Source of the DNA: Roseateles oligotrophus
GTDB lineage: Bacteria > Pseudomonadota > Gammaproteobacteria > Burkholderiales > Burkholderiaceae_C
DNA length: 64,000 bases
Reading direction: 5' to 3'
NCBI RefSeq assembly: GCF_014204525.1
Contig: NZ_JACHLP010000002.1
Span: forward strand, 310,001-374,000
This document shows, one piece after another, positions 36,751 to 54,579 of this stretch; within the stretch, counting starts at the first letter, position 1; every line of letters starts with the position of its first letter. The notes below the pieces were generated by a model. It did no database searches, was not told the origin of the DNA, and saw only the letters and a list, made by a program, of their open reading frames with translations. The translations under genes were made by a program, and so were the position numbers.

Positions 36751-37044
36751 ATGAGCACGCCTTCTTTCCGCCAAAGCGCCTTGCGTTCCAGTCTTGCCCT
36801 GGCTCTGAGCCTGGCCACCGCCTGGGCAGGCGCCGCGCCGCAAGCCCAAGCCGCCAGCGAGACCACGGTGCATGTTCTGCCCCGCGTGGTGGTGACGGCC
36901 AAGTCGCAGCCTGCCAGTCCGGTGCAGCATTTGCCTCGGGTGGTGGTGAGCGGCCGTTCGACGGCGGCCCCCGCGCCCGAGCAGGCCGCCTTGCCGCAGG
37001 CTCAGACGGTGCTGATCGCCAAGGCCCAGCCCCGCCGTGGTTGA
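36751..37044 (+). CDS. Small exported protein with two LPRVVV repeats (family copy 1)
   Basis: A 97-residue protein with a signal peptide (hydrophobic 11-27, cleavage near QAQAA). The mature part carries VHVLPRVVVTAKS (41-52) and VQHLPRVVVSGRS (58-70), then an Ala/Gln/Pro-rich tail. The motif resembles the ETVVVTA/RVVVTGSR start of TonB-dependent receptor plugs. Unlike the other three paralogues (47775, 50406, 54295) it lacks a terminal cysteine. CAGGAG precedes the ATG. Function unknown; a periplasmic or surface role is inferred only from the signal peptide. Confidence 0.72.
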   Translation: MSTPSFRQSALRSSLALALSLATAWAGAAPQAQAASETTVHVLPRVVVTAKSQPASPVQHLPRVVVSGRSTAAPAPEQAALPQAQTVLIAKAQPRRG

Positions 37045-37388
37045 ACCGCTCCGCGCAAGACCTGACCCCGTCTCTGCAGGCCGGAGTGCGTGCGAATTTG
37101 ATGTAATCATTCCCAAGCCTTGGCAGCCCGGTAATTTTGGCGTTAGTGAGCTATTCTGCTGAGCAGGGTTTGCGAACATCGAACCGAATCGCAGCGCCGT
37201 GAAAAAAGTCTGTTGGCCTCGCGCCACTGCGATTCGGCTTGAATTTGAACCCAAACCTCAGCAGTCCTTGGGATTAAAGTCCTCCCTGTTTCAGTCGATG
37301 ATTTGATCAATGCTTGGGTGCATTGGCGAAACGCTTGTCGATGAATGGAAGCGCGTGACGATTCGGGTCGCGCCAAGGAGAACATTGA
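37045..37388. other. 344-bp intergenic region
   Basis: It contains a 15-bp repeat GCAAGACCTGACCCC (37055-37069) just after the small gene. The rest is of lower GC content, with ATTTGATCAAT (37301-37311) near the middle-right. It should hold the promoter of the downstream hybrid kinase, but no clear -35/-10 pair was identified. Confidence 0.5.
37055..37069 (+). repeat. 15-bp GCAAGACCTGACCCC repeat, copy 1
   Basis: An identical 15-mer occurs at 48088-48102, again within about 55 nt downstream of a small LPRVV gene stop. This sequence (reverse complement GGGGTCAGGTCTTGC) resembles short intergenic repeats often found near REP-associated transposases; no such transposase is in the window. Confidence 0.55.
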
Positions 37389-39392
37389 ATGGGTGTCGCG
37401 AGTAGGGCTCAGGCAGTACCGAGCCTTGCATTGGAGCAACGCTTGCTGCAGATTGCGGCGCGTTTTTCCGAATTGGGGGCATGGCTGCAGGAGAGCGGGC
37501 CTGCAGGGCTTTTCCATGCCAGCCCCAAAGTGCATGAAATCCTGGGCGCCGAACCCGGTGAGTTGAAGGTCCTGCGGGACTGCTGGACCTTTTTGCATGC
37601 AGATGATCGCGCCCAGGCCGAGCAGGCCCAGGCCTTGTGCGAATCGCAGGCGCGCGCCTATTCGCTGGAGCTGCGCCTGGCCCGTGCCGATGCGACCGAG
37701 CGTTGGGTGCGGCTGCAGGTCTCGCCCCTATTGGACGCCGCGGGTCAGCCCAGGGGCAGCGAAGGCGCTTTCCGCGATATCAGCGCGGTCAAGATCACCG
37801 AGGCGGTGCTGCAGGAAAGCGAGATGCGCTTTCGCTCGCTGATCGAGGGCGTGGACAAGGTCTCGGTACAGGGTTATGACAGCCAGCGCCGGGTGATCTT
37901 CTGGAACAAGGCCAGCGAAAACCTCTACGGCTACAGCACCGCCGAGGCCATAGGCCGGCAGCTGGAGGATCTGATCATCCCGCCGGCCATGCGCGAGCTG
38001 GTCATCCAGGGCACGCGGCAATGGCTGGAGTCGGGCGTGGTCAGCGTGCCTTCCGAGGAGCTGGTGCTGCGCCATAAAAATGGCTCGGATGTGCCGGTGT
38101 TCTCCAGCCACGCCATGCAGCGCAGCCGCAGCGGCGAGGCCTTTCTCTACTGCGTCGATGTGGACCTGAGCGAGCGGGTGCAGGCTGAGGCCACCCGCGC
38201 CAAGCTGGAGTCGCAGCTGCGTGAGGCGCAAAAGCTGGAGGCCATGGGCACCATGGCCGGCGGTATCGCGCATGATTTCAACAATGTGCTGGGTGCCATC
38301 CTGGCCAATATCAGCCTGGCCAGCGAACTGCTGGGCGAGGAGCATCCGGCCATGCGCCATATGCGCTTGATCAGCCGGGGCGGCGAGCGGGCGCGCAGCA
38401 TGGTGCGCAAGATGCTGGCCTTCAGCCGCCGCCAGCCGCACTCGTTGGAGCTGCTCGAACTGGGTGGGCAGGTCGCTGAAGGCCTGGCCCTGTTGCGCGC
38501 CAGCCTGCCCAAGGGTGTGGGCTTGCAGCTGGATGTGCTGGACGGCGATCTGCGGGTGCAGGCCGATGCCAGCGAGTTGCAGCAGGTGCTGCTCAACCTC
38601 TGCAGCAATGCCTGGCAGGCCTTGCCGGCCAAGGGCGGCCACATCCATGTGGGCCTGCGCCGTGCGCAGCTGCCGGCCGACAGGCCCGAGCTGGAAATGC
38701 CGGCCGGCGCCTACGCCGAGCTGTTCGTGCGTGACGACGGTTGCGGCATCGATGCCCTGACCCAGGCACGTATTTTCGAGCCCTTCTTCACCACCAAGCC
38801 GATAGACCAGGGCACCGGCCTGGGCCTGGCCGTGGTACATGGCATTGTGCGCAGCCATCACGGCGCCATCGCCATCGACAGCGTGGTCGGCAAGGGCAGT
38901 TGCTTCTATGTCTATCTGCCCATCGCCGAAGGCCAGGCCCTGGCCGCCTTGCCGCCCGAGCCGGCAGCAGCGCAGGCCAAGAGCCCGGAGGCGCCGCGCG
39001 CCAAGCCGGCCCCCCAAGGCCAGCGCCTGATCTATGTCGACGACGATGAGGTGATGCGCCTGACCGTCGAGGGGCTGTTGCTGCGCGCCGGCTATCGGGT
39101 CGGCCTGTGCAGCGGCGCCGAGGAGGCCCTGGCCTTGTTGGTGGCCACGGGCCAGGATGTGGCCGCCTTGATCAGCGACTATCACATGCCCGACCGCGAT
39201 GGACTCAGCTTGGCTAATGCGGTATTGCAGCAGTATCCGGGCCTGCCGGTGCTGCTGTCCTCGGGCTATATCAGCGAGCAGTTGCATGAACAGGCCCTGT
39301 CCCTGGGCGTGTCCTGCCTGATCAAGAAAGAGAATCTGCTGGAAGAGCTGCTGCCCAGCATCCATGCCCTGCTGGGCGAAACACCCGGCTAA
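37389..39392 (+). CDS. PAS-domain hybrid sensor histidine kinase with C-terminal receiver
   Basis: A 667-residue soluble kinase: a first PAS-like region (about 15-125), a second PAS domain (about 140-270), HisKA with His295 (GGIAHDFNNVLGA), N box LLNLCSNAWQALP, G boxes RDDGCGID and GTGLGLAVVHGIV, then a receiver with Asp597 (LISDYHMPDRDG). There is no membrane segment, so it senses an internal signal. AAGGAG lies upstream of ATG 37389. It precedes two cyclase-type genes on the same strand, which suggests a combined phosphorelay/cyclic-nucleotide module. Confidence 0.88.
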   Translation: MGVASRAQAVPSLALEQRLLQIAARFSELGAWLQESGPAGLFHASPKVHEILGAEPGELKVLRDCWTFLHADDRAQAEQAQALCESQARAYSLELRLARADATERWVRLQVSPLLDAAGQPRGSEGAFRDISAVKITEAVLQESEMRFRSLIEGVDKVSVQGYDSQRRVIFWNKASENLYGYSTAEAIGRQLEDLIIPPAMRELVIQGTRQWLESGVVSVPSEELVLRHKNGSDVPVFSSHAMQRSRSGEAFLYCVDVDLSERVQAEATRAKLESQLREAQKLEAMGTMAGGIAHDFNNVLGAILANISLASELLGEEHPAMRHMRLISRGGERARSMVRKMLAFSRRQPHSLELLELGGQVAEGLALLRASLPKGVGLQLDVLDGDLRVQADASELQQVLLNLCSNAWQALPAKGGHIHVGLRRAQLPADRPELEMPAGAYAELFVRDDGCGIDALTQARIFEPFFTTKPIDQGTGLGLAVVHGIVRSHHGAIAIDSVVGKGSCFYVYLPIAEGQALAALPPEPAAAQAKSPEAPRAKPAPQGQRLIYVDDDEVMRLTVEGLLLRAGYRVGLCSGAEEALALLVATGQDVAALISDYHMPDRDGLSLANAVLQQYPGLPVLLSSGYISEQLHEQALSLGVSCLIKKENLLEELLPSIHALLGETPG

Positions 39393-39500
39393 AGCGGTCC
39401 AAGTCTGGCCTTGAACCCGCAGGCCGCTGCTTGACAATGAATGCGAGCGGCGCCGGCCGCAGGACGGCCCGGCGTTCAGGACTTGCAAAAAGGGCCGGGC

Positions 39501-40793: not shown

Positions 40794-40851
40794 GATGGCG
40801 GGGCGCAGCGTTGGTAGGGAACCACGCGCGCATGCGAACGAGAGCTGATGC

Positions 40852-43800: not shown

Positions 43801-43962
43801 TCGGCCCATGAGCTGGCGGTGAACCAGCTCTGCCATGCCGAGATCGCGCATTCGCAGGGCCGCCCTGCTGCGCGCGAGCTGGATCAGGCCGAAGCGGCCT
43901 TCGGCCGCCTGGGCATGGCCTGGCATCTGGGCGAGGTCAGGCGCTTGCGTTCAGACCTGTAG
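40852..43962 (+). CDS. Class III adenylate cyclase fused to AAA ATPase and TPR-like domain
   Basis: A 1036-residue signalling protein. Residues 20-205 form a class III cyclase domain with metal aspartates D26 (LLFADLSES) and D70 (RIQGDGMLAIFGYP). A P-loop ATPase follows (FVGRDFEMSLLEQAL near 220, Walker A GPGVGKTRL near 250, Walker B LLFIDDLQWADD near 336), then a long helical TPR-like repeat region (about 600-1036). This architecture is widespread in proteobacteria and resembles LuxR-type MalT/STAND sensors with cyclase output; the ligand is unknown. Overlaps the convergent DyP-P450 gene by 12 nt. Confidence 0.87.
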   Translation: MTIQSDIAPALGFLGQRRNLTLLFADLSESTRLADAMEAEDYALMLSELRGLYQGLVRQHGGLVVRIQGDGMLAIFGYPQSGEDDGRRAAYAALDLHEAVRAMRPASGAPSWPHRRSLTLHSGIHAGLVLMEAGDEVRGRFELLGNVPNIAARLCEAAAADEILVSEVSLGLQGQFFQLDERRNLLVRGRATPLSVCKVLGRNDIKRRFEASQKRGLTPFVGRDFEMSLLEQALNAACAGRPRWISVRAGPGVGKTRLTEEFLQRAADEHCQIHRGYCEPHLSAEPLQPYLQMLRSLQGLGFAAADAVLQLPPKARAEAVLSLVMELASELPQLLFIDDLQWADDASVALLHRLRAVAAEFKLPVLVLTATRPHSQNSLESLPELIGQAAKLRNDAEVQVHELQPFTEQESLHATSQLLPHVDPFWAAEIQRHAGGNPLFIEELCHALSHEGSAEEAARNFGAFASHAASPEGSSLGKQVGSGSAWLSSLVESRMARLPADEAELLRSAAVIGNVIPVWLLQRVTGCDESHPAVRRLAEQDFVFPAQRPGHLRFKHGMARDVVYEAIGLQARQAMHRKILAELHAVQQDGEREEPANELLAYHSRAAQQWEAAAHHAEQAGDQALASSALDRAKKQYRAVLEALEHLPQTDEIALRWISIAARLGLACVFDASRADLRVMQHAAKLAQLSGHQDLIARAEYWLGYVGYALGQARSSSQHCERGLAAAEQGQDVALIAQLHGTLGQVRAAAADYDAALQLLDGSIAFQRPRQRPGRPPVGLAYSLACRAYVLGDRGEFAAAQAAFDEALSGIQGSNHAVEASIQGWRAAVLLWQGRWAEAQACGADSRRIGTLVRSLFTCAMGHAAQAYGQWMASRSPLARQDLLNATHWLAPRGGGLFSSLNHGWLAEILVSQGEARLARHHIAQALCRARQHDLIGVAMAYRAAARMTACTAMARQGLSEAQRSVEIARYLAHADAVARRRGSAHELAVNQLCHAEIAHSQGRPAARELDQAEAAFGRLGMAWHLGEVRRLRSDL

Positions 43963-46900
43963 GCCCAGCACGGTGGGCGAGCCGGTGAAGCGCAGCGTGC
44001 CGGCCTCCAGAACGGCAGCCGCCACACCCAGCATCACGCCCATAGCCATGGCGTAGCCGGAACAGGCGTGCAGCGGCGCGGGCAGCACCGCGTCGCGGCG
44101 ATCCCCGCCAAACATCAGGGTGTGGTTGCGCGGGTCTTGCTGGGTGGCCGAGGCAATGCCGACGATCACCGTGTCGCCTTGCTGCACCTCCACCCCGGCC
44201 AGGCGATGGGCTTTGCGCGCCGTGCGCCAGACCATGCCGGGCACCGGCCGGCCCACCATGGTGGCGATCAACGTGGGCCGCAGGCTTGCGACGGCCTGGG
44301 CATAGATCTGGGCCGGCGCCGTGCCGGCGGCAAAGCGCGGCCAGTCCTGCTGCACATCCCAGAGCTTTTTGCTGACGATCCAGGCGCCCAGGCAGCCGAC
44401 GGTATTGCCATGCACGGTGGGCGGGAAGCCCAGCATGATGCCGGCGATGGTGCGCGGCACGATGTCGGGGTCTTGCGCGCTCATGCCTTGCAGCGCCTCC
44501 TTGATGGCCTGGCTCAGCTTGGGCAGGGGCGCATCGGCCGCCTGGGCGGCCAGCCATTGCTTGACGGCGGCCTGCAGGCCCTGGCCTTTTTTGCTGGCCA
44601 CCTTGCCGACCAGCTCGCTGGGGTGGGGGCCGAAGACGAAGCGCGAGACGGCGAAGAAGTCGCGCGGGCAGCGCGGCGCGTCCTGGCCATCTGCGGGCTT
44701 GGCATGCCATTCCGTGCCCCACATGGCCTGGCCGTCGGGCAGGCCGAACCAGGTTTTGCACAGGGCCGCCAGCACATGCTCCGACAGCTGCTCCACATCC
44801 AGCAAGCCCTCCTTCAGATGCAGCTGCTGGGCGCCGCCGCGCACCTTGGCGACGACGGCGGCCGCCACCGCGTGGGCGGCCGTGAAGGCGCTGGCCTCGT
44901 CGATGCTCTCGATCGCCGCATTGATCAGCGGCGCCTGCTCGGCATGGCCGCTGTCCTCGTCCATGCCCAGATAGCCGCGGCCTATGGACTGGGCCATGCG
45001 CGAGCCATAGCCCGTCACCGAGTAGCGCGACTCGCGGTCGCGGAAGACCTCGCAGACCTCGCGCGCCTCGCCCACCAGCACGCCGTAAGCGGTGCGCAGC
45101 ACGCCGCCGGGCTGGCTGCGGACATAGGCCCAGGCGGCGTCGCGGCTGCTGCTGTCTTCCAGCCATTGCTGCCAGGCCTGGGCGTCGTCCGGCGCGGGCG
45201 CGCGGCTGGGCACGGCGATGGGCGTCGGGAAGGCGGGCAGCTCCACCAGGGCCGGCAGCAGGCGCAGGGCCGGCAGCGAGGGCACGAAGAAATAGGCCCC
45301 CCATTGCAGCTCGACAAAGGGCTGGTCGCCCAGGTTCAGGTGCAAGACCCGCCCCTGGTGCTCAAAACGGTAGATGCGCGGCGTGGTGGCGGGCAGGGCC
45401 TTGGCGGCCGGCGTCTGCGGCACGGCCACGCCCAGGAAGGGGTCGGCTTGGGGCCCATAGCCGCCGCTGGCATTGCCGCCGGAGATCCAGCGCTGGATGA
45501 TCTCGAACTGTTCGGCCAGATTGGCGTTGTAAGCCATGAAGATCAAGCCGCGGTCCTCGGCATCGGGCGTGCTGCTGTCGCTGCTGCCGTGGACCGGGCC
45601 GTAAGACATGCCGCGCCGCAGGATGCGGGGCACCGGCAGGCCGGGGATGTCGGTGCGCGGGTTGGCGCGGCGGATGTGGGCGTGGAAGGGGCAGGCCGAG
45701 CCCTTGGCGTCCTCGCTGTAGTTGAAGCCGTTGCTGGCGCCCAGGCTGGGTGCGGCCAGGGGCGTGCCGTCGGTCCAGCGGCCCATCATCTTGCCCAGCA
45801 GCTCCTCGCGGTTCAGGCCCAGCTGGGGGGCTTGGGTGTCCAGGCAGTGGTGCAGGCGATCCACATACTGGCGCAGCTTGCGCACAACGAGGAAGCTACC
45901 CTTGTCCAGCAAGGCGTCGGCGGCCTCGGGTACGGCGCAGCTGTCGCGGTCGCTGCGGAAGCCCAGCAGCAGCTCGCCGCGATGCACGGCGTCCGACCAG
46001 GGCTGGGCCGGCGTCTGCGGGCCGGGCTCGCCGACCTGGGGCTGGCTGATGCCGTCCACAAAGCCGAAGCTCTCGCGCGTCTGCTGCGGGTTCTTGGGGT
46101 TGATGCCGCGGCGCATCGCTTGCACTGACAGCACTTGCAGGCCCGTGTCCTGCTCCAGACTATGGATGGCCGCCTCCAGGCTGCTGCCGGCGGGCAGGGC
46201 GCCGTGGCGCAGCTGGATCAGCAGATGCACGGCACCTAAGTCCACCGGCCGGCCATCGGCCTTGGCCTCCGGCCAGTTGCGGGTCGGCAGCTTCCAGTAG
46301 CGCGGGTGGTTGTGGCGCACGTCGCCGAGCACGCCGGCGCGCGCCTCCATGCCCTCGATAAAGGGCTGGGGGAAGCGCTCCAGCCGCGTGTTGCTAACAC
46401 CAAGCGCACGCAGACCGCTGAGGCTGAGCGCCAGATTGCGATAGAAGCCGTCCGCCGGCTTTTTGCCGGCCATCGTGTCGGCCTCGCTATTGAGCGTGAG
46501 GCTGCTCAAATAGGCCAGGGCCTTGGCCGCTTGCGTCACCCGCAGCAGCACCATGGCGCCGCCCTGCAGATCGGGGTAGGCCGTGAGCATGCCGCCCTGG
46601 ATGTCGGCGTCGCTATAGTCCAGCGCGCGGGCCGGCAGCTCGACCTTGGGCGGCGCCTTCTCAAACCAGTCCAGCATGCGGTAATAGGCCTCGCGCAAGG
46701 GGCTGGCGGGCGGGAAGAGGCTGGCGGTGTCCAGCTCCACCAGCTCGAAGAGGATGTCGCGCGCCGCGCGGATCAGGCACAAGCCGTCGGGCGCACCGGC
46801 CAGGAAGTAGCGCTCCAGGGTGTAGAGCGTGGCCAGGGCCGGCAGGCCGCGCAGGGCCATGGCCATGCGTGCAGGCATCTGGCTGGTGTCGGGCAGGGGA

Positions 46901-47496
46901 TTGCTGGCGCCGGGCAGGCCGGTGTGCAGCTGGGTGGCGGGCAGATCATTGCTCGGGTGCAGCTCGCGCTGCTGCCATTCCAGGGCGGCCAGGTATTCGT
47001 GGTCGCTGGTGCTGCGGCCCGATTCGAAGTAGAGGAAGTCGGCCGAGATCTCATGCGCCCGCACCCATTGCTTGTAGCGCTCGAAGCTGGTTTCCTTGGC
47101 CAGTTGGTAGCCCTCGGCATGGCAGAGGATCAGGTCCAGCATGCTGCCCAGCTGGTCCCAGATCACCCGCATATAGGGCTCCCAGCCGCCGTCGAAGCAG
47201 ACATTGAGCAGCAGCTTGTGGGGTTCGCCCAGCGGGGCGTCCGGCTTGGGCTCGATGATGGCCCAGCGGAAGGAGTGGACGATGCGGAAGCGGCTCACCA
47301 CATCGGTGAACAGGCCCGGCACCTCGCTGGACTCGCGCGCCCCCAGGCGCAGGGCATTGAGCGACTTGAGCACACGGCGCAGGCGGTCGACGTAGCTGAT
47401 GGTTTCAAAAGCCGTCACAAAGCCGGCTTTGATGGGCGTGATCAGCACCAGATCGGTGATGCCTTGCAACTGGGTTTCGGGCTTGTTGAATGACAT
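43951..47496 (-). CDS. DyP-type peroxidase fused to a cytochrome P450 domain
   Basis: A 1181-residue protein carrying two haem-enzyme modules. The peroxidase part has the GxxDG motif GFVDG at about 478-482 and the proximal haem histidine near 607 (AHIRRANPR). A ~400-residue N-terminal extension resembles the ferredoxin-like half of large DyP enzymes but is not fully assigned. Residues about 780-1181 look like a P450: an I-helix-like region (AGIMLGFPPTVHG) and the haem-thiolate loop with Cys1145 in PLHACSGYAMAMGVML. No signal peptide is seen, so it is probably cytoplasmic. The single continuous frame has no break. The biological substrate is unknown; a peroxide-driven two-step oxidation is a guess. 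Confidence 0.82.
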   Translation of the reverse strand: MSFNKPETQLQGITDLVLITPIKAGFVTAFETISYVDRLRRVLKSLNALRLGARESSEVPGLFTDVVSRFRIVHSFRWAIIEPKPDAPLGEPHKLLLNVCFDGGWEPYMRVIWDQLGSMLDLILCHAEGYQLAKETSFERYKQWVRAHEISADFLYFESGRSTSDHEYLAALEWQQRELHPSNDLPATQLHTGLPGASNPLPDTSQMPARMAMALRGLPALATLYTLERYFLAGAPDGLCLIRAARDILFELVELDTASLFPPASPLREAYYRMLDWFEKAPPKVELPARALDYSDADIQGGMLTAYPDLQGGAMVLLRVTQAAKALAYLSSLTLNSEADTMAGKKPADGFYRNLALSLSGLRALGVSNTRLERFPQPFIEGMEARAGVLGDVRHNHPRYWKLPTRNWPEAKADGRPVDLGAVHLLIQLRHGALPAGSSLEAAIHSLEQDTGLQVLSVQAMRRGINPKNPQQTRESFGFVDGISQPQVGEPGPQTPAQPWSDAVHRGELLLGFRSDRDSCAVPEAADALLDKGSFLVVRKLRQYVDRLHHCLDTQAPQLGLNREELLGKMMGRWTDGTPLAAPSLGASNGFNYSEDAKGSACPFHAHIRRANPRTDIPGLPVPRILRRGMSYGPVHGSSDSSTPDAEDRGLIFMAYNANLAEQFEIIQRWISGGNASGGYGPQADPFLGVAVPQTPAAKALPATTPRIYRFEHQGRVLHLNLGDQPFVELQWGAYFFVPSLPALRLLPALVELPAFPTPIAVPSRAPAPDDAQAWQQWLEDSSSRDAAWAYVRSQPGGVLRTAYGVLVGEAREVCEVFRDRESRYSVTGYGSRMAQSIGRGYLGMDEDSGHAEQAPLINAAIESIDEASAFTAAHAVAAAVVAKVRGGAQQLHLKEGLLDVEQLSEHVLAALCKTWFGLPDGQAMWGTEWHAKPADGQDAPRCPRDFFAVSRFVFGPHPSELVGKVASKKGQGLQAAVKQWLAAQAADAPLPKLSQAIKEALQGMSAQDPDIVPRTIAGIMLGFPPTVHGNTVGCLGAWIVSKKLWDVQQDWPRFAAGTAPAQIYAQAVASLRPTLIATMVGRPVPGMVWRTARKAHRLAGVEVQQGDTVIVGIASATQQDPRNHTLMFGGDRRDAVLPAPLHACSGYAMAMGVMLGVAAAVLEAGTLRFTGSPTVLGLQV

Positions 47497-47640
47497 GAGT
47501 GGGTTCCCTGAGCGCTTGTTGTTCCCGGCCGGAACCATAGGCCTATGCCTGCCCGCTGTCAGCAAAATAAAAAGGGATTGAGACCATTCCTGCCGCCGTC
47601 ACCGATTCGTCATCAAAGCCCATGGGCACGGCGATTCATC

Positions 47641-47720
47641 GCCTCAAGCCACCGCTGGCGCGCCGCTTCCGCCACTTCGTCGCCTGGCCCTGGCAAACCC
47701 GCCCGGTCTTGCCGACACTG
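47641..47720 (+). promoter_or_regulatory. Conserved leader of the small LPRVV protein family, copy 2 (diverged)
   Basis: GCCTCAAGCC (47641), CACTTcgTCGCCTGgcCCTGG (47673-47693) and GACACTG (47714) line up with the leaders at 50287 and 54178, with about 10 extra nt near the left block. GACACTG begins 61 nt before the ATG. Confidence 0.4.
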
Positions 47721-47774
47721 TGGACACAGCAGCAAAACACCGCCTTCAATCCAGCCCGCCAATCGGAGCCCATC

Positions 47775-48035
47775 ATGCAAAAGCTACTCTCCTTGCGCAC
47801 CTTGTTCACCGCTCTTGTCGCCGTGGCCGCCGCCGCCATGCTGGGCATGAATCTGGCCGATGAGCTGAGCCCACCGCAGCCGCGCCCGGTGGTCAAGCTG
47901 GAACGCGTGGTGGTGCAGGGCCAGCGTACGGCGGCGGTGCAGCTGCCGCGGGTGGTGGTGCAGGCCTCGCGCAGCGCCGGCAAGCAGCAGTCCGCCCTGG
48001 CCACCCAGCTGAGGGCCGATAACCCGGCCTGCTGA
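47775..48035 (+). CDS. Small anchored protein with two RVVV repeats and terminal Cys (family copy 2)
   Basis: An 86-residue protein. An N-terminal hydrophobic segment (9-26) with a basic start could be an uncleaved anchor or a signal peptide. Two repeats follow, VKLERVVVQGQR (40-51) and VQLPRVVVQASR (55-66), then a hydrophilic tail ending ...NPAC, with cysteine as the very last residue. ATG 47775 is preceded by CGGAG. Closely related in plan to the products at 36751, 50406 and 54295. Function unknown. Confidence 0.7.
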   Translation: MQKLLSLRTLFTALVAVAAAAMLGMNLADELSPPQPRPVVKLERVVVQGQRTAAVQLPRVVVQASRSAGKQQSALATQLRADNPAC

Positions 48036-48087
48036 GGCCTGTGTTTTGCGCTGCTGTGTGCCCGATTCTTGAAGTTTGATGACAGCG

Positions 48088-48102
48088 GCAAGACCTGACC
48101 CC
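48088..48102 (+). repeat. 15-bp GCAAGACCTGACCCC repeat, copy 2
   Basis: Identical to 37055-37069 and again lies shortly downstream of a small LPRVV gene (stop at 48035). Confidence 0.55.
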
Positions 48103-48209
48103 AGGGTGAATCTTGCCCATGGGCCGCGCTGCGGGAAACTCTGTGCCGCCGACGTCTGCGCCCCCTTGTAATATGGCCGCACCCCATCGCCGCCGAGCAA
48201 GGAAGCGCC

Positions 48210-50267
48210 TTGATCTCTCGATTCCGCCGCCTGTTTTTCCTCAACCAGGAGGGCGGTTGCTCGGCCTCCTCGCCGCCGACTCTTCATGCCGCTCCCGGCC
48301 GATCGCGCAGCGCTTATTCCTTTTGCCTGCTGGCCCTGCCCGCCCTGATGACCGCCTGCGGCGGCGGTGGTGGTGGCAGCAGCCCCGATGTTCCTTCGCC
48401 CAGCCCGATCCCGCTCGAACCGCCGGCCCTGAGCAGCCGCTGCGAGCCCGGTTCGGTGGCCCGGCTGGCGCTGGAAGCCAAGCCGCAGCAGGGGCGCAAT
48501 ACCGAGCTGAGCCTGCTGGCCTGCGCGGCGGCCAGCCTGAGCGGCCTGAAATGGACGCAAACCGCCGGGCCGGCCTTGAACAGCCTGAGCAGCCGGGCCC
48601 AGGCCATCAGCGTGGAGCCCACCGCGGCCGGCCCCTACCGCTTTGATCTGAGTTATGTCGACGGCCAGGGTCGCAGCTTTATCGCCCCGGTGCAGTTCAG
48701 CGCGGCGCCGGCCAGCGAACCCCTGCAACTGGTCTTGCGCGGCGAGCCCTCGGCCCTGAGCGGCAGCAAGCTGTCCCTGCGTGCCTGGTTGCCCCAGCTG
48801 ACGCCGAGCGAGCTGGCCCAGGCCACGGTGAGCTGGAGCCAGACGGCCGGCCCCACGGTCGAGCTCGGCAATGCCGGCAGTAGCAGCAGCCTGCGCCTGG
48901 TGTTGACGGCCCCCGTCGTCAGCAGCGACAGCATCGTGGCCCTGAGCGCCAGCCTGAGCCTGCCGGACGGACGCCGCGCCAGCGGCCAGTTCAATCTGCT
49001 GGTGCAAGCCCAGGGCACGCTGCCCAGCGACCCGCTGTTCGGCAGCAGCGAGCCCGTCAGCCGCGTCTACCCCTATCAGGCCCAAGGCCCTTACGCCGCG
49101 GCGCTGAAGGACTGCATCTACAGCCCCACGCTCAGCCGCAGCAATCTCTGCACCCTCAACCGCCTGCCCCTGCTGGGCCAGCAGACGGCCGGGGCCGCGC
49201 CCTCGGTGGAGCAGGTGATGCAGCGGGTGCTGGTCTCGCACGACTGGATGGCCGAGGTGTTCGAGCGCTTTCTGCGCGAGCAGGACGTCAATGGCGACTT
49301 CCGCCGCATGCTCTCCGCCGTCACCGCCGTGGTGATAGGCGGCCAAGTGCGGCCGGCTTTTTACTGGAACGCCACCGGCGCCATCTATCTGGACGCCAGC
49401 TACCTCTGGCTGACGCCCGCGCAGCGCGACACCCTCAGCGAAGCGCCGGACCCGCGCAGCGCCAATGGCCAGAGTCTGCAATACGCCACGCCATGGCGTT
49501 ATGTGAAGGACAACCGGCATGCCCTCACCAGCTATGCCGTGCTGGAACGCCAGAGCCGCGGCCTGGGCGAGCTGCCCTACGAGCTGGGCCGCCTGCTGTA
49601 TCACGAGCTGACCCATGCGGGCGACTTCCTGCCGCCCGCCGTGCAGGCCAGCCTGGACGGCAGCAAGCGGGTGTATGAGGCCAGCCCGGCGCTCACCCCT
49701 TCGCAAGAGCTGTTCAATCGCCTGCCCTTCTACTCCAGCACCATGCAAGGCCTGGCGCGGGTGCTGTCGTTTGGCGAGGCGCCCACGCTTTTGCAGACCA
49801 GCTACACGCCCGGCGACATCACATATTTCTTCAGCAAGGACCGCGTCAACGACGATTACAGCTACTCGGTGCCCAGCGGCGCCAATTTTTCCCGCGAGGA
49901 TGCGGCCATGCTGGTGGAGGAGGCCATGATGCAGCTGCGCTACGGCGTGCTGCGTGACTTCGCCATTACCAATCAATTGGCGACGGGGGCCAGCAGCGCC
50001 GATCTGATCGTCAACTGGGGCCAGCGCGGCCGCATCGGCGAGCCGGCCATACGGCCGCGCCTGCAACTGGTGCTGAACCAGATCATGCCCTGGTTGCCGC
50101 CCGATATCAGTGCCAATCTGGCGCCGCCCCTGGCCTTGCGTGCCGGCCAGAGCTGGGGCGCCAACCTCGACCTGGCCGCCCTGGCCAGCGGCCGCAGCCG
50201 GGCCTTGAGCAGCCAGCAGCAGCTGAACGAGCAAGAGCAGACCACGCGGGTTCTGCGGGCGCGCTGA
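48210..50267 (+). CDS. Lipoprotein with HExxH metalloprotease-like motif
   Basis: A 685-residue exported lipoprotein. A long N-terminal region leads to the lipobox LMTAC with Cys50, followed by a Gly-run linker. Residues about 75-285 contain two Ig/PKD-like repeats, each with W(T/S)QTAGP (KWTQTAGPAL, SWSQTAGPTV). The C-terminal half contains H465-E-L-T-H469 (LLYHELTHAGDF), a zinc metalloprotease-type motif, and GANFSREDAAMLVEEAMM downstream with possible third-ligand glutamates. No peptidase family was identified. The TTG start at 48210 has AAGGA 8 nt upstream. It lies between two small LPRVV genes. Confidence 0.7.
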   Translation: MISRFRRLFFLNQEGGCSASSPPTLHAAPGRSRSAYSFCLLALPALMTACGGGGGGSSPDVPSPSPIPLEPPALSSRCEPGSVARLALEAKPQQGRNTELSLLACAAASLSGLKWTQTAGPALNSLSSRAQAISVEPTAAGPYRFDLSYVDGQGRSFIAPVQFSAAPASEPLQLVLRGEPSALSGSKLSLRAWLPQLTPSELAQATVSWSQTAGPTVELGNAGSSSSLRLVLTAPVVSSDSIVALSASLSLPDGRRASGQFNLLVQAQGTLPSDPLFGSSEPVSRVYPYQAQGPYAAALKDCIYSPTLSRSNLCTLNRLPLLGQQTAGAAPSVEQVMQRVLVSHDWMAEVFERFLREQDVNGDFRRMLSAVTAVVIGGQVRPAFYWNATGAIYLDASYLWLTPAQRDTLSEAPDPRSANGQSLQYATPWRYVKDNRHALTSYAVLERQSRGLGELPYELGRLLYHELTHAGDFLPPAVQASLDGSKRVYEASPALTPSQELFNRLPFYSSTMQGLARVLSFGEAPTLLQTSYTPGDITYFFSKDRVNDDYSYSVPSGANFSREDAAMLVEEAMMQLRYGVLRDFAITNQLATGASSADLIVNWGQRGRIGEPAIRPRLQLVLNQIMPWLPPDISANLAPPLALRAGQSWGANLDLAALASGRSRALSSQQQLNEQEQTTRVLRAR

Positions 50268-50286
50268 AGACATTCATCCGGCCGGG

Positions 50287-50405
50287 CTGCAGCTCAAACG
50301 ACGCTTCTGTCACTTGATCGCCTGCGCCTGGAATCGTGGGTGGCCAAGGCCGAAACTGCATCCATGGTTAGCGCTTTTGCTAGCCCCGCAGCAGGAGTCA
50401 AGACC
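50287..50405 (+). promoter_or_regulatory. Conserved leader of the small LPRVV protein family, copy 3
   Basis: 119 bp directly before the ATG that align with 54178-54294 almost end to end: CTGCAGCTCA, TTGATCGCCTGC, CTGGAAT, GGCCGAAACTGC, GGAGTCAAGACC. GCAGCTCAAACG (50289) and GAAACTG (50352) are 63 nt apart. A 2-nt length difference near the gene shifts the reading frame between copies, which argues against a translated extension. Confidence 0.6.
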
Positions 50406-50672
50406 ATGAATACCCGCCCCAAGAATCGCCTCGTCATCGTCTGCGCCGTGCTCGGCCTTGGCCTCGGCGGCACCAGCGCCTGGCTCGCCCGCGGCCCCGC
50501 CGCAGCACCGGTCCAGGTCGTGAAGCTGGAGCGGGTGGTGATCGAGGGCAAGCGTGCCAGCGCGGCCCAGCCGATCGAGCATCTGCCTCGCGTGGTGATC
50601 GAGGGGCGTCGCAGCGATGCCACAGTGCAAATGGCCGCCGCCCGGCGCTGCGAGGCCAGCCAGGATTGCTGA
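50406..50672 (+). CDS. Small anchored protein with two RVVI repeats and terminal Cys (family copy 3)
   Basis: An 88-residue protein: basic N-terminus, hydrophobic segment (9-28), Ala/Pro spacer, then VKLERVVIEGKR (39-50) and EHLPRVVIEGRR (58-69). The tail has two cysteines, C82 and the terminal C88 (RCEASQDC). GGAGTCAAGACC precedes the ATG. The gene and its leader look like a duplicate of 54178-54579, with the DUF1800/DUF1501 pair between. Function unknown. Confidence 0.72.
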   Translation: MNTRPKNRLVIVCAVLGLGLGGTSAWLARGPAAAPVQVVKLERVVIEGKRASAAQPIEHLPRVVIEGRRSDATVQMAAARRCEASQDC

Positions 50673-50820
50673 GTGCCCAAGGCGGCGCGCGCTTTGTGCG
50701 GCGCCCCGTGTATCTGTGTAAATTTCTGGTTACCTTGCCTTACAAACTTCCCTCCCCAGCCCGCTGAACTCGGCCGTGGCTTGGCTAGAGTGCCCGACTC
50801 TAGGAGAGCGAGGGAGTGAT

Positions 50821-52605
50821 ATGAAAAAGAATCGCATGGCGTGGGCGGCCAAGGCCGCTGCGCTCGCTGTCGTCGTGGGTCTGAGTGCCTGCGGTGGCGG
50901 CGGTGGAGGCGGGGGGGCGAGCAGCCCGGCCTCGGCGCCGACGCCCGAACCGGTGGTGATCAAGCCCAGCAACGAGCAGGCGCGGCGCTTCCTGCTGCAA
51001 GCCAGCTTCGGCCCCACCGATGCCTCCATCGAAGCCGTCATGCGGCTGGGTTATGAGGCCTGGATCGACGATCAGCTGGCCAAGCCGGCCAGCTCGCACC
51101 GCCTCAACTGGGACAACGCGGACGCCGCCATCAGGGCCGCCAAGGCGGCCGGCACCGGCACCGGCAAGGCCACGAATGCCGGCGCCGGCGAGGTGCTGGA
51201 CTCCTTCTACAAGGTGGCCGTCACCGGCGATGACCAGCTGCGCCAGCGCCTGGCCTATGCCTTGTCACAGATCTTCGTCGTCTCGCTGGCCCAGGGGGCG
51301 TTGGGCGAGCAGCCACGCAGCGTGGCGGCCTATCTGGATATGTTGGCCAAAGAGGGCACGGGCAGCTACCGCGATCTGCTGCAGCAGGTGGCCTTGCATC
51401 CGGCCATGGGCATCTATCTCTCGCATCTGCGCAACCAGAAGGAAGACCCGCTGACCGGCCGTGTGGCCGATGAGAACTTTGCCCGCGAGGTGATGCAGCT
51501 CTTCTCCATCGGTCTGCAGGAGCTCAACACCGACGGCGGCCCCAAGCTCGATGGCACGACGCCCCGGCCCAGCTACGGCCCCGAGGATGTCAGCGGCCTG
51601 GCCAAGGTTTTCACCGGCTGGAGCTGGGACGGCCCCGACACCGACAACAACCGCTTCGCTGGCTGGTGCCCGACTTTCTGCGAGCCCGATCGGCTCATCC
51701 AGCCCATGCAGGGCTATGGCCAGTACCACTCGATCAGCGAGAAGCGTTTTCTGGGCACGGTGGTGGCGGCGCAAAGCAAGGCCAAACCCGAGGCCAGCCT
51801 CAAGGCGGCGCTGGACACCCTGGCCGCCCACCCCAATGTGGGGCCCTTTATCGGCCGCCAGCTGATCCAGCGCCTGGTCACCAGCCACCCCAGCCCGGCT
51901 TATGTGGCACGGGTGGCCCAGGCCTTCGGCCCCAGCGGCAATATGAAGGCCATGCTCAAGGCCGTGCTGCTGGACCGCGAGGCCCGCGAACCGGCCGCCG
52001 CTGATGCCAATGCTTATGGAAAGCTGCGCGAGCCCGTGCTGCGCCTGACCCAGACCCTGCGGGCGCTGGAGTCCAGCAGCGATTCCGGCGCCTGGTTGAT
52101 ACGCAGCACCGACGACCCCGCCGCGCAGCTGGGCCAGTCGCCGCTGCGCTCGCCCTCGGTGTTCAATTTCTACCGCCCCGGCTATGTGTTCGCGGGCGGC
52201 GAGACGGGGGCTGCCAAGCTGACCATGCCCGAGCTGGCCCTGGTGAACGAAAGCTCGGTGGCCGGCTATTCCATCTATATGCGCAATGGCTTGTCCAGCG
52301 GCTTTGGCCCCTCCGGCCTCGACGGCAAGAACGGGCGCCCCGATGTGCAGCTGGCGCTGACGGCCGAGTCCGCCCTGGCCGACAAGCCGGCCGAGCTGGT
52401 GAACCTGGTCAGCGCCAAGCTGCTGGGCGCGCGCAGCAATGCGGAGCTGAAGGCCGAGATCGTGGCGGCGGTGGAGAGCGTCAAGCTTGATGCGCTGAAG
52501 GCCGACGCCAGCAACCAGAAAACCGTGGACGAGCAGCGCCGCAACCGCGCTCGCATGGCGGTTTATTTGAGCGTGCTATCCCCCGAATACATGGTGCAAA
52601 AATGA
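50821..52605 (+). CDS. DUF1800-family exported lipoprotein
   Basis: A 594-residue protein of the DUF1800 family (QARRFLLQASFGPT near 50, RQRLAYALSQIFVVS, ADENFAREVMQLFSIGL, PSVFNFYRPGYV). The N-terminus has a signal with lipobox GLSAC (Cys24) followed by a Gly-run. DUF1800 proteins are secreted or surface proteins of unknown function, nearly always paired with DUF1501. The next gene is exactly that and overlaps by 4 nt. Confidence 0.9.
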   Translation: MKKNRMAWAAKAAALAVVVGLSACGGGGGGGGASSPASAPTPEPVVIKPSNEQARRFLLQASFGPTDASIEAVMRLGYEAWIDDQLAKPASSHRLNWDNADAAIRAAKAAGTGTGKATNAGAGEVLDSFYKVAVTGDDQLRQRLAYALSQIFVVSLAQGALGEQPRSVAAYLDMLAKEGTGSYRDLLQQVALHPAMGIYLSHLRNQKEDPLTGRVADENFAREVMQLFSIGLQELNTDGGPKLDGTTPRPSYGPEDVSGLAKVFTGWSWDGPDTDNNRFAGWCPTFCEPDRLIQPMQGYGQYHSISEKRFLGTVVAAQSKAKPEASLKAALDTLAAHPNVGPFIGRQLIQRLVTSHPSPAYVARVAQAFGPSGNMKAMLKAVLLDREAREPAAADANAYGKLREPVLRLTQTLRALESSSDSGAWLIRSTDDPAAQLGQSPLRSPSVFNFYRPGYVFAGGETGAAKLTMPELALVNESSVAGYSIYMRNGLSSGFGPSGLDGKNGRPDVQLALTAESALADKPAELVNLVSAKLLGARSNAELKAEIVAAVESVKLDALKADASNQKTVDEQRRNRARMAVYLSVLSPEYMVQK

Positions 52606-54143
52606 GCAGCAGCCCTTTCATCCCATCTGCGGCCTCGCGCCGTGCATTCCTGCGCCAGGCCGGCGCGCTGGCCGGCATGGGTGCGGCCGCGCCCATGGCC
52701 CTCAATCTGGCGGCCCTGGGCCAGGCCAGTGCCCAGGCGACGGGCGACTACAAGGCCTTGGTCTGCCTGTTCCTGACCGGCGGCAATGACAGCTTCAATA
52801 TGTTGTTGCCCACCGATACCGATTCATGGACCGCCTACCAGAACACGCGCCGCCAGGCCCCCGACTCCATCGCCCTGCTGGCCGCCGGCACGGCACCCGA
52901 GCTGGGCGCCGCGGCCGCCTCGCCGGCGCGGCTGGGCGGGGTGCTGCCCATCAGCCCCCTCAACAACCAGGGTCGCAGCTTTGCCCTGCATCCCTGTCTG
53001 GGCGCGCTGCGCGATCTCTTCGGCGCCGGCCGCCTGGCCGCGGTGGCCAATGTCGGCCCGCTGCTGACGCCGACCAGCAAGGCCGATCTCAAGCAGGCCA
53101 GCTTCCCGCGCCCGAGCGCGCTGTACTCCCACAACGACCAGCAATCCACCTGGCAATCGCTGCGCCCCGAGGGCGCCGCGCTGGGCTGGGGCGGCCGCAT
53201 GGCCGACCTGCTGCTGGCCGGCAATAGCCAGGCCATCTTCAGCGCCGTCACGGTGGGCGGCAATGCGGTGTTCCTGAACGGCCAGCGGGTGCTGCCCTAC
53301 CAGGTCAATACCCGTGGCGCCGTCAAGGTGGGTGGTTATGCGGCCAATCTGTTCGGCTCCACAACGGCGATGGAGCGGGTGCGCAATGTGATGCGCAACA
53401 AGCGCAGCGAGGACCTCATCGCGCGCGACCATGCCGCCATGGTGGCGCGCGCCCTCAACGCCGAAACCGCGCTGGCCACCGCCCTGCCCGACAGCTTTGG
53501 CGCGCCTTTTGGCACGCCCGGCCTGGCCGCCGGCGCGCTCGACCCCCTGCTGCAGTACGACAACCCGCAGACCGGCGGCAAGGCCGCCAACAATCTGGCG
53601 CATCAGCTGCAGGTGGTGGCCCGGCTGATCCAGGCCCGCGGCAGCCTGGGCGCCAGCCGCCAGGTGTTCTACGTCAGCATGGGCGGCTTTGACACCCACG
53701 ACGCGCAAAACCGCAACCATGCCGAGCTGATGGCCAGGCTGGCCCATGGGCTGAGCTACTTTGACAGCGTGCTGGGCTCCTTGGGCCTGCGCGACAAGGT
53801 CACCCTGTTCACCGCCAGCGATTTCGGCCGTACCTTCACCAGCAATGGTGACGGCACCGACCATGGCTGGGGCGGCCACCACCTGGTCATGGGCGGCGCG
53901 GTGCGCGGGCGCGATATCTACGGCAAGTTCCCGGTGCTGGGCGTCAAGAATGCCAGCAACAACCATTTCGACAGCAGCCCCAACCAGCTGGCCAACGGCG
54001 CCTTGCTGCCCGAGGTCTCGGTCGAACAGCTGGGCGCCACCCTGGGGCGCTGGATGGGGGTGTCCGATGGCGGCCTGGCCGACATCTTCCCCAGCCTGAA
54101 GAATTTCGATGCCGGCGTGCGCGACCTGAAGTTCATGGTTTGA
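52602..54143 (+). CDS. DUF1501-family Tat-exported protein
   Basis: A 513-residue protein. A twin-arginine signal is visible at the start (SRRAFLRQAGALAGMGAAA). The DUF1501 core, related to the sulfatase/alkaline-phosphatase superfamily, includes FLTGGNDSFNMLLPTD, YSHNDQQSTWQS, YVSMGGFDTHDAQNRNH and TASDFGRTFTSNGDGTDHGWG. Asp/His residues in the last three could bind metal. Function unknown. Translationally coupled to the DUF1800 gene (ATGA), so the two probably act together outside the cytoplasm. Confidence 0.9.
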   Translation: MSSSPFIPSAASRRAFLRQAGALAGMGAAAPMALNLAALGQASAQATGDYKALVCLFLTGGNDSFNMLLPTDTDSWTAYQNTRRQAPDSIALLAAGTAPELGAAAASPARLGGVLPISPLNNQGRSFALHPCLGALRDLFGAGRLAAVANVGPLLTPTSKADLKQASFPRPSALYSHNDQQSTWQSLRPEGAALGWGGRMADLLLAGNSQAIFSAVTVGGNAVFLNGQRVLPYQVNTRGAVKVGGYAANLFGSTTAMERVRNVMRNKRSEDLIARDHAAMVARALNAETALATALPDSFGAPFGTPGLAAGALDPLLQYDNPQTGGKAANNLAHQLQVVARLIQARGSLGASRQVFYVSMGGFDTHDAQNRNHAELMARLAHGLSYFDSVLGSLGLRDKVTLFTASDFGRTFTSNGDGTDHGWGGHHLVMGGAVRGRDIYGKFPVLGVKNASNNHFDSSPNQLANGALLPEVSVEQLGATLGRWMGVSDGGLADIFPSLKNFDAGVRDLKFMV

Positions 54144-54177
54144 CGGAGCGCGGCGGCCGCTGCTTCATCGCGCCAGA

Positions 54178-54294
54178 CTGCAGCTCATTCGCCCCAGCCG
54201 CCGATTGATCGCCTGCCGCTGGAATGCCGTGCTTGCGCGGCCGAAACTGCTTGCATGGACGGCGCTTGTGCCGGCCTCGCAGGGAGTCAAGACC
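54178..54294 (+). promoter_or_regulatory. Conserved leader of the small LPRVV protein family, copy 4
   Basis: 117 bp aligning with 50287-50405, including CTGCAGCTCA, TTGATCGCCTGC, CTGGAAT, GGCCGAAACTGC and GGGAGTCAAGACC. GCAGCTCATTCG (54180) to GAAACTG (54243) is 63 nt, as in copies 1 and 3. Confidence 0.6.
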
Positions 54295-54579
54295 ATGTTC
54301 AGCAGCAGCAAGAAGTTCGCCCTTATCGCCTTCGTCGCCCTCGGTCTGACGGCCGGCGCCAGCGCCGCCTATCTGCTCCACGCCAAGAGCAGCACGCCCG
54401 CTGTCGCCGTGGTCAAGCTGGAGCGCGTGGTCATCACGGGCAAGCGCCAGCAGCTCGCGGACGCGGCCCAGGCCCGCCCTATCGAGCGCCTGCCCCGTGT
54501 CGTGATCGAAGCGCGCCGCGCCCCCGAAGCCCTGCAAGTGGCGGACGCCCAGGCTTGTGCCGCCGCGCTGGCCTGCTGA
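54295..54579 (+). CDS. Small anchored protein with two RVVI repeats and terminal Cys (family copy 4)
   Basis: A 94-residue protein: basic start, hydrophobic segment (8-29), then VKLERVVITGKR (40-51) and ERLPRVVIEARR (64-75), and a tail with C88 and terminal C94 (ACAAALAC). GGGAGTCAAGACC precedes the ATG. RVVITGKR is very like the plug entry of TonB-dependent receptors. Follows the DUF1501 gene by 151 nt. Function unknown. Confidence 0.72.
   Translation: MFSSSKKFALIAFVALGLTAGASAAYLLHAKSSTPAVAVVKLERVVITGKRQQLADAAQARPIERLPRVVIEARRAPEALQVADAQACAAALAC

What the first reader, a model, noticed from the sequence alone, without database searches (positions are those of the whole stretch)
36751..54579. 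Four-member family of small exported proteins with twin TonB-plug-like RVVV motifs
Genes at 36751, 47775, 50406 and 54295 encode 86-97-residue proteins with an N-terminal signal or anchor and two copies of a (L/K)-L-(P/E)-R-V-V-(V/I)-x-x-x-(R/S) motif, the second always preceded by LPR. Three of the four end in a terminal cysteine, and two have a second Cys 6 residues earlier. RVVITGKR and RVVVTAK resemble the TonB-box/plug entry of TonB-dependent receptors, but no barrel follows. The copies lie within 18 kb, interleaved with exported proteins of unknown role. The window also encodes a Fur-regulated TonB-ExbB-ExbD system. They could be soluble or anchored TonB-box mimics, signalling peptides or precursors; all of this is inference beyond the repeat pattern.
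Basis: partly seen in the sequence, partly recalled or inferred. Interest (0 to 1): 0.85.

Follow-up and report, generated by a model that had tools for sequence, protein, structure and literature searches.

The report
LytTR-controlled small TonB-box-like exported proteins

Summary
The four small genes are real, conserved and look exported; they belong to an undescribed Burkholderiales family (relatives in Paucibacter, Roseateles, Pelomonas, Methylibium). The main new result is regulatory. 65 of 73 family upstream regions carry a TTCRTCGC-like site 38 bp before a -10-like hexamer (score 11 or more; 3 of 522 other genes reach this), with further half-sites 20-21 and 41 bp upstream. This matches published LytTR direct-repeat architecture. 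The strict pattern has 7 hits in the 5.3-Mb genome: 5 precede the five family genes, 2 lie inside long frames. A LytS-LytTR-GIN operon lies 5-8 kb beyond the last copy; its LytTR orthologue lies within 16 kb of a family gene in 17 of 23 genomes with both (and coordinates). But four genomes of the genus keep family and operator without it, and a second LytTR group has its own small motif-bearing neighbours, so the cognate regulator is unsettled. The motif resembles TonB-receptor N-termini: of 19 long proteins examined among weaker matches, 18 are TonB receptors. Best mechanism: LytTR-induced periplasmic TonB-box-like tails that compete for TonB. The regulatory layer is well supported; TonB binding is inference.

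The parts
36751..37044 (+). family copy 1: 97 aa, hydrophobic N-terminus, LPRVVVTAKS + LPRVVVSGRS
   Evidence: no Pfam or NCBIfam family above cut-off
47775..48035 (+). family copy 2: 86 aa, KLERVVVQGQR + LPRVVVQASR, C-terminal Cys
   Evidence: orthologue in G006 with pS 0.273, pN 0.091
50406..50672 (+). family copy 3: 88 aa, KLERVVIEGKR + LPRVVIEGRR, C-x5-C end
54295..54579 (+). family copy 4: 94 aa, KLERVVITGKR + LPRVVIEARR, C-x5-C end
   Evidence: orthologue in G006 with pS 0.354, pN 0.154
36614..36698 (+). LytTR-type operator/promoter of copy 1: half-sites at 36614, 36634 (weak) and 36655 (TTCGTCGC), -10-like GAAACT at 36693-36698
   Evidence: upstream half-sites read
47635..47719 (+). LytTR-type operator/promoter of copy 2: half-sites at 47635 (TTCATCGC) and 47676 (TTCGTCGC), -10-like GACACT at 47714-47719
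   Evidence: upstream half-site read
50273..50357 (+). LytTR-type operator/promoter of copy 3: half-sites at 50273, 50293 (weak) and 50314 (TTGATCGC), -10-like GAAACT at 50352-50357
   Evidence: upstream half-sites read
54164..54248 (+). LytTR-type operator/promoter of copy 4: half-sites at 54164, 54184 (weak) and 54205 (TTGATCGC), -10-like GAAACT at 54243-54248
   Evidence: upstream half-sites read
60338..61132 (-). LytTR response regulator (LytTR-A): receiver + LytTR DNA-binding domain, first candidate regulator
   Evidence: Pfam Response_reg 1.7e-20 and LytTR 1.9e-18; linkage and co-occurrence
61156..62328 (-). LytS-type sensor histidine kinase, candidate partner of the LytTR regulator
   Evidence: Pfam His_kinase 8.6e-22 and HATPase_c 1.4e-8
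59586..60341 (-). GIN-domain (DUF2807) protein next to the HK/LytTR pair
   Evidence: Pfam DUF2807 5.5e-40; kinase, LytTR and GIN together in 12 of 14 further loci, one (G156) without a GIN hit and one (G002 region) without any of the three

Best explanation
The genes encode a family of short exported or inner-membrane-tethered proteins whose business end is a probably unstructured periplasmic tail with one to three (perhaps four) copies of a TonB-box-like motif, L-[EP]-R-V-V-[VI]-x-G-[KR]. They form a regulon: each is transcribed from a weak -35 (CTGG-like, by eye) / -10 (GAHACT) promoter preceded by two or three tandem LytTR half-sites at 20-21 bp spacing, and is induced by a LytTR response regulator, either the LytS/LytTR/GIN system in this window or a related LytTR. 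Once exported, the tails add as beta strands to the TonB C-terminal domain and occupy or buffer TonB, so lowering or retuning TonB-dependent receptor traffic when the sensor fires. Status of the steps: reality of the family, well supported; export, by eye; shared operator and promoter, shown computationally; LytTR control, strongly inferred (about 0.9) with the exact regulator unsettled; TonB binding, inferred from motif resemblance (about 0.4); inhibitory or buffering outcome, inferred (about 0.3).
For: Operator: 65 of 73 family upstream regions score 11 or more and 55 of 73 score 12 or more, against 3 and 0 of 522 other genes and 0.14% and 0.03% of 3650 Markov-resampled sequences. Extra half-sites sit at -41 (36 of 65) and -20/-21 (30 of 65) from the main site and at no other offset in more than 2. 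In the window the only sites scoring 12 or more are the four genes; two others score 11. In the whole own genome the strict pattern hits 7 places: 5 are the five family genes and 2 lie inside long open frames. LytTR link: published LytTR repeats are about 9 bp, mostly 12 bp apart and just upstream of -35, and the AlgR core is CCGTTCGTC (passages of PMC6193735 and PMC4064291). The LytTR-A orthologue is in 23 of 31 genomes with the family and 5 of 169 without, and lies within 16 kb of a family gene in 17 of the 19 genomes entered, about 0.5 expected; four further genomes with both were not entered and are unlinked by the coordinates, so 17 of 23. TonB-box likeness: 18 of 19 long proteins examined carry Plug + TonB barrel; with the motif-only model the ten best non-family matches are receptors. 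Receptor genes lie beside family genes in some relatives (L077, L087). Precedent: the TonB-box pentapeptide ETVIV blocks TonB function (passages of PMC11308372 and PMC5413942).
Against: No binding or expression data exist. Motif position 7, T in the receptor consensus, is variable here (T 31, V 15, E 11 of 65). Four genomes of the genus (G002, G004, G014, G016) keep the family and operator but lack LytTR-A, so LytTR-A is not essential; LytTR-B is present in them but associates less tightly overall (24 of 31 against 16 of 169). Five sampled genomes have LytTR-A without a family gene at my cut-off (G082, G135, G155, G210, G212), and the 20 kb fetched around their LytTR-A held no operator-linked small ORF. 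Three family-positive genomes (G061, G100, G106) have neither LytTR at my cut-offs. Five of the 31 family-positive genomes have no strict operator hit. The HK/LytTR/GIN genes have no operator of their own (none reaches 11). Co-occurrence and linkage are not corrected for phylogeny or inherited synteny, and the 73 upstream regions include close orthologues. The operator score and half-site variants were defined from some of the sequences tested; the controls reduce this but do not remove it. The AlphaFold model of copy 4 is poor (mean pLDDT 59.5), so disorder of the tail is not proven.
Confidence: 0.4

Rival explanations
1. Secreted peptide signals or bacteriocin-like precursors: a Gram-negative parallel of the Gram-positive LytTR peptide regulons, in which the exported peptides are processed and sensed by the LytS kinase or act on neighbours.
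For: LytTR control of small exported peptides is the Gram-positive arrangement (PMC6193735, passages; PMC2766830, search listing with start of abstract only). Several members lie near the kinase/regulator operon. Motif number varies between members, as in repeat-bearing precursors.
Against: No double-glycine leader was recognised (by eye); a peptide exporter was not searched for. The HK/LytTR operon carries no operator of its own. Many members look membrane-anchored (by eye). Conservation is concentrated in the motifs.
Confidence: 0.2
2. Envelope-stress effectors or feedback ligands for the LytS kinase or the GIN-domain protein: the motif is a beta-strand ligand for an exported protein other than TonB.
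For: The GIN-domain protein accompanies the kinase and regulator in 12 of the 13 loci that hold the pair, and the block lies near family genes in 8 of the 20 family loci fetched. A second LytTR group also has small membrane proteins with one copy of the motif beside it.
Against: The motif's nearest sequence relatives outside the family, among those examined, are TonB receptors. There is no direct evidence for a GIN contact.
Confidence: 0.25
3. The tails are remnants or leaders derived from TonB-receptor N-termini with no TonB-related role: small ORFs kept for another reason, such as membrane insertion.
For: An N-terminal signal followed by an LERVVVTG-type stretch is what the receptor N-terminus looks like. 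Some operator-linked copies have lost motifs (L201, L209).
Against: Motif residues are strongly kept (L 64, R 60, second V 60, G 60 of 65 in motif 1). There is purifying selection and shared regulation in many genera.
Confidence: 0.1
4. The operator is recognised by LytTR-B (own genome C4:355250-356059) or by AlgR-like LytTRs in general, and the window's LytS/LytTR/GIN operon is only a syntenic neighbour.
For: Orthologues of LytTR-B are present in G002, G004, G014 and G016, which keep the operators but lack LytTR-A. A small motif protein lies beside LytTR-B in 10 of 30 loci scanned, with one more variant (L270), and in G112 and G207.
Against: LytTR-A associates more tightly with the family (23 of 31 against 5 of 169). 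Of 12 small genes beside LytTR-B examined only 1 (L282) carries the operator at score 11 or more, and none was found beside LytTR-B in the own genome.
Confidence: 0.4

Closest known systems
Gram-positive LytTR-controlled small-peptide regulons (ComE, PlnC/D, HdrR/BrsR bacteriocin promoters; names partly recalled)
   Same: Several short exported peptide genes behind tandem repeats about 21 bp apart just upstream of a -35/-10 promoter; a LytTR regulator is the expected activator.
   Different: Different organisms, Sec-type signal or anchor instead of a double-glycine leader (by eye), a third half-site in many copies, TonB-box-like repeated motif, GIN protein beside the regulator pair.
AlgR/AlgZ of Pseudomonas (LytTR family)
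   Same: Half-site core TTCGTC matches the AlgR core CCGTTCGTC; histidine kinase + LytTR regulator pair.
   Different: [quoted passage not shown] the target genes here are a different, undescribed family.
TonB-dependent receptor N-terminus (TonB box)
   Same: Exported N-terminus followed by an LERVVVTG-like stretch; found by profile and by motif-only model.
   Different: No Plug and no barrel; the motif is usually repeated; total length 86-97 aa here.
TonB-box pentapeptide inhibitor ETVIV (synthetic)
   Same: Same idea: a short TonB-box peptide competes for TonB (PMC11308372 and PMC5413942 passages).
   Different: Synthetic and added from outside; here a regulated, exported, multi-copy natural family is proposed.

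Membership tests
TonB-dependent receptors | Plug and beta-barrel domains | tested here: not met
   no Pfam match above cut-off in the four proteins
TonB-dependent receptors | N-terminal TonB box after an export signal | tested here: inconclusive
   motif resembles receptor N-termini by profile; binding to TonB not tested
LytTR regulon | two direct repeats of about 9 bp with about 12 bp between, just upstream of the promoter | tested here: met
   half-sites 20-21 and 41 bp apart, main site 38 bp before the -10
LytTR regulon | a LytTR regulator in the genome, linked to the targets | tested here: met
   9 LytTR domains in the genome, one in the window; linkage in 17 of 23 genomes (with coordinates); but 4 genomes of the genus have targets without this LytTR
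LytTR regulon | the regulator binds and activates these promoters | not testable with these tools
   needs EMSA and reporter assays
Gram-positive-type peptide pheromone or bacteriocin | double-glycine leader and dedicated ABC peptidase exporter | tested here: inconclusive
   no such leader seen by eye in the 73 proteins printed; exporter not searched
TonB-dependent colicins/pyocins | receptor-binding and killing domains besides the TonB box | tested here: not met
   86-97 aa, no Pfam or NCBIfam domain above cut-off
catalogued protein families | match above curated cut-off in Pfam or NCBIfam | tested here: not met
   PHROGs best E 0.083; PADLOC not searched

The most novel reading that the evidence does not exclude
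A natural, regulated anti-TonB system: bacteria use a LytTR two-component switch to export several membrane-tethered multivalent TonB-box decoys that gate TonB-dependent transport globally, a layer of control over TonB that my searches did not find described.
Probability: 0.28. Interest if true: 0.9.

Novelty: new variant of a known kind. Interest (0 to 1): 0.7.

Why it matters
It turns four unannotated ORFs into a defined regulon with testable regulators and a testable target. If the TonB part is right, it would be a dedicated cellular way of throttling TonB, through which siderophores, vitamin B12, bacteriocins and phages enter. Even if it is wrong, the operator gives a precise handle for finding a LytTR regulon of small exported proteins across Burkholderiales that Pfam and NCBIfam do not list.

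Tried and rejected
Pfam and NCBIfam searches of the four proteins gave nothing above cut-off and PHROGs nothing better than E 0.083. The solved-structure search gave three weak matches, all to OPA1 (best E 0.077), judged chance. AlphaFold of copy 4 with its three paralogues gave mean pLDDT 59.5 and pTM 0.21, with an N-terminal helix and a weak C-terminal helix only; it was not searched against fold libraries because the model is too weak.

Considered and rejected: that the family is a chance repeat (conservation, pN below pS, shared operators); that the promoter is an ECF-sigma promoter (first thought on seeing the upstream regions; the 20-21-bp tandem half-sites and the -10-like hexamer fit LytTR better); that the DUF1800/DUF1501 neighbours define the function (the pair accompanies family genes in 2 of the 40 fetched loci clustered, L096 and L097, both of this genus); that the window LytTR alone explains the regulon (contradicted within the genus).

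Literature (library of open-licence PMC papers only, so absence in print is not shown): (TonB box + small protein + Burkholderiales + signal peptide + repeat) 0 papers; (DUF1800 + DUF1501) 2, listing only; (TonB box + small secreted protein) 1, listing only; (LytTR + direct repeats + 12 bp + promoter) 3, passages of two read; (LytTR + GIN domain) 0; (TonB box + pentapeptide) 15, passages of three read; (LytTR + TonB-dependent receptor) 8, passages of one, on HigX of Caulobacter, read; (TonB box + decoy) 9, listing only; (Tuckman + TonB box + peptide) 6, passages of two read; (LytTR + Roseateles) 0. No paper was read whole.

Not done: correction for phylogeny; complex modelling with TonB (only single proteins can be folded here); signal-peptide prediction by a dedicated program (judged by eye); tests of ExbB/ExbD and Fur; a by-group tally of the strict pattern over all 200 genomes (only the 31 family-positive ones were summed).
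Full report
OBSERVATION. The four ORFs are exactly as described. None matches a Pfam or NCBIfam family above its cut-off. Searching the own genome with copy 4 finds the other copies, with weak scores for copies 1 and 2, and a fifth at C1:754891 (all five confirmed by profile). In the genus 15 of 18 genomes carry family genes by my reading of the sequences; the tool's tally is 16 of 18 at E<=0.1 and I leave out G017. In 200 genomes of the wider family 50 match a 12-sequence profile at E<=0.01. Some of these are receptor N-termini only; 31 have a best match at E<=2e-6 and are taken as family-positive, a cut-off of mine that leaves out weaker likely members (for instance G022 and G156). Named relatives are Paucibacter, Roseateles, Pelomonas, a Methylibium MAG and unclassified Burkholderiales and Comamonadaceae (17 loci). 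One of them, Paucibacter sp. KBW04, has a contig of the same length as G006 contig 30, so the window comes from a Paucibacter/Roseateles-type genome (inference).

CODING AND CONSERVATION. Nine pairs compared by Nei-Gojobori counting give pooled pS 0.264 and pN 0.070; the weakest pair, L052/L090, has pS 0.123 and pN 0.092. In 65 operator-bearing members motif 1 is L (64), E/P/A (64), R (60), V (53), V (60), I/V (64), variable, G (60), K (54), R/S (58). In 52 second motifs L is 52, P 51, R 45, V 51, V 48, G 44. By eye the proteins fall into groups: KLERVV forms, many with a C-terminal Cys; short LPRVVITGKS forms with a likely cleavable signal; and ASEVVKLARLVITGKR...RRAQFQPI forms. Motif number by a regular expression is two in 54 of 73, one in 16, three in 2 and four in 1; some counted as one have a second, variant motif, and the one with four contains an unknown residue from an assembly gap. 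Twenty-three of 65 end in Cys.

OPERATOR. Aligning upstream DNA of paralogues from many genera shows a fixed layout: a TTCRTCGC-like site starting 38 bp before a -10-like GAHACT, a weak CTGG-like -35 about 18 bp upstream of the -10 (by eye), and ATG 35-77 bp after the start of the -10 in 64 of 65 members (133 in one). 77 distinct upstream sequences were collected; 73 had a -10 candidate and were kept. They come from 56 loci and include close orthologues. 65 of 73 score at least 11 and 55 at least 12, against 3 and 0 of 522 other genes in the same loci and about 0.14% and 0.03% of 3650 Markov-resampled sequences. The score was designed on part of these sequences, so the family figure is partly circular. 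The upstream half-sites, not part of the score (though their allowed variants were chosen after looking), occur at -41 in 36 and at -20/-21 in 30 of 65, with no other offset in more than 2. In the window the only sites scoring 12 or more are the four genes; two others, at 41299(+) and 45540(-), score 11. In the 5.34-Mb genome a strict pattern has 7 hits, five of which precede the five family genes; the other two lie inside long open frames. The reversed-pattern control has 1 hit.

Across 200 genomes 96 have a strict-pattern hit, many of them plainly background. In the 31 family-positive genomes there are 82 hits against 29 for the reversed control, and five of these genomes have none; the other 169 were not summed. 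I fetched 20 places chosen because they looked typical or were known. Six were known family places. Of the other 14, four lead to divergent motif-bearing small proteins (L198, L199 with three HRVVVTATRLP-like repeats, L203, L208), three to short exported ORFs with weak or lost motifs (L202, L204, L209), two to exported DUF2141 proteins (L200, L207; Pfam) and five to nothing convincing.

WHICH REGULATOR. Published LytTR operators are two repeats of about 9 bp, mostly 12 bp apart and 4-11 bp upstream of -35 in S. mutans systems, and the AlgR core is CCGTTCGTC (passages). The window carries a LytS-type kinase, a receiver-LytTR regulator (LytTR-A) and a GIN-domain protein at 59586-62328. Its LytTR is one of 9 LytTR domains in the genome. 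Of the 20 loci, fetched because they hold family genes, 8 show the same kinase-LytTR-GIN block beside them (L077, L078, L079, L080, L084, L086, L090, L094; in L080 the regulator itself was not called as a gene but is found). The LytTR-A orthologue group (at least 315 bits, or 73% identity for the partial G175 match; the next match has 262 bits) is in 28 of 200 genomes. It is present in 23 of the 31 family-positive genomes and 5 of the other 169. Around LytTR-A in those five no operator-linked small ORF was found within the 20 kb examined. LytTR-A lies within 16 kb of a family gene in 17 of the 19 genomes entered, about 0.5 expected; four further genomes with both (G037, G062, G069, G164) were not entered and are unlinked by the coordinates, so 17 of 23. 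This linkage partly reflects inherited recQ-ssb synteny.

Against LytTR-A as sole regulator: within the genus it is in 11 of 18 genomes, all 11 with family genes; the three genomes without family genes (G012, G015, G017) lack it, but G002, G004, G014 and G016 keep family genes and operators without it. These four have an orthologue of another own LytTR, LytTR-B at C4:355250. I count LytTR-B in 24 of 31 family-positive and 16 of 169 other genomes: from the 44 genomes I dropped five with about 50-61% identity or partial matches (G043, G069, G099, G100, G171) and added G002, because one search scored only 12 candidates per genome. G061, G100 and G106 have the family and neither LytTR by these cut-offs. 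Beside LytTR-B, 10 of 30 loci scanned hold a small membrane protein on the opposite strand ending in or carrying one copy of the motif, for example VWQLEPVVVTGQ, L270 holds a variant, and G112 and G207 have similar ones; none was found in the own genome. Only 1 of the 12 examined has the operator. So small motif proteins are tied to LytTR genes twice over, but the cognate regulator remains open. Upstream regions of the kinase, LytTR and GIN genes do not reach the operator score of 11.

WHAT THE MOTIF IS. The family profile and the copy-4 search also hit long frames. Twenty such places were fetched; one proved to be a family member. Of the other 19, 18 carry Plug and TonB barrel domains and one is a chemoreceptor from the weak single-sequence search (E 0.94). 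Not all long-frame rows were fetched. With a model of the 14-residue motif alone, against 558 other called proteins plus the 18 receptors, the ten best non-family matches are receptors and the next two are receptor-like genes from the background set, one confirmed by Pfam; the 18 receptors had been preselected. In some relatives a receptor gene lies next to family genes, e.g. between two of them in L077. TonB boxes act by strand addition and depend more on local secondary structure than on side chains (passages of PMC11658791). A TonB-box pentapeptide, ETVIV, inhibits TonB (passages of PMC11308372 and PMC5413942). This supports, but does not show, TonB-box mimicry.

MECHANISM. Most likely the kinase or a related LytTR system senses an envelope condition, the LytTR activates these promoters together, and the exported tails offer extra TonB boxes in the periplasm, lowering the share of TonB available to receptors. 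Shown: the family, the operator architecture and, for the strict pattern, its near-exclusive use in the own genome. Inferred: LytTR binding, membrane topology, TonB contact, inhibitory sign. Rivals are peptide signalling, and ligands for the GIN protein or the kinase.

VERDICT. The finding is real and more interesting than first described, mainly because of the regulon. I rate it a new variant of a known kind (a LytTR regulon of small exported proteins) with a bolder unproven reading (natural TonB decoys).

Noticed in passing
L200:389-838 (G061) and L207:187-603 (G099): Exported DUF2141 proteins lie directly behind the same LytTR-type operator and promoter in two other genera, suggesting a second target class of the regulon.
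   Followed up: partly
L268, L269, L271-L274, L276-L278, L282: Beside a second LytTR group (LytTR-B) sits a small membrane protein of about 60-78 aa with a single TonB-box-like motif near its end, on the opposite strand.
   Followed up: partly
L077:7866-10787: A TonB-dependent receptor gene flanked on both sides by family genes; L078 has a similar arrangement with one more called ORF in between.
   Followed up: partly
window 50776-54143: A DUF1800-DUF1501 gene pair lies between family copies 3 and 4; two other genomes of the genus have the pair near family genes (L096, L097).
   Followed up: no
window 48210-50267: A 685-aa ORF with an HExxH-like stretch (YHELTHAG, by eye) and no Pfam match; it lies between copies 2 and 3.
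   Followed up: no
window 43951-47538 (-): An ORF of about 1195 aa with only a Dyp-type peroxidase C-terminal domain match; the rest has no Pfam match at E 0.001.
   Followed up: no
window 29524-29742: A TonB C-terminal domain, one of eight TonB_C matches in the genome.
   Followed up: no
L201 and L209: Operator-linked small exported ORFs in which one or both motifs have been lost, possibly decaying or diverged copies.
   Followed up: no
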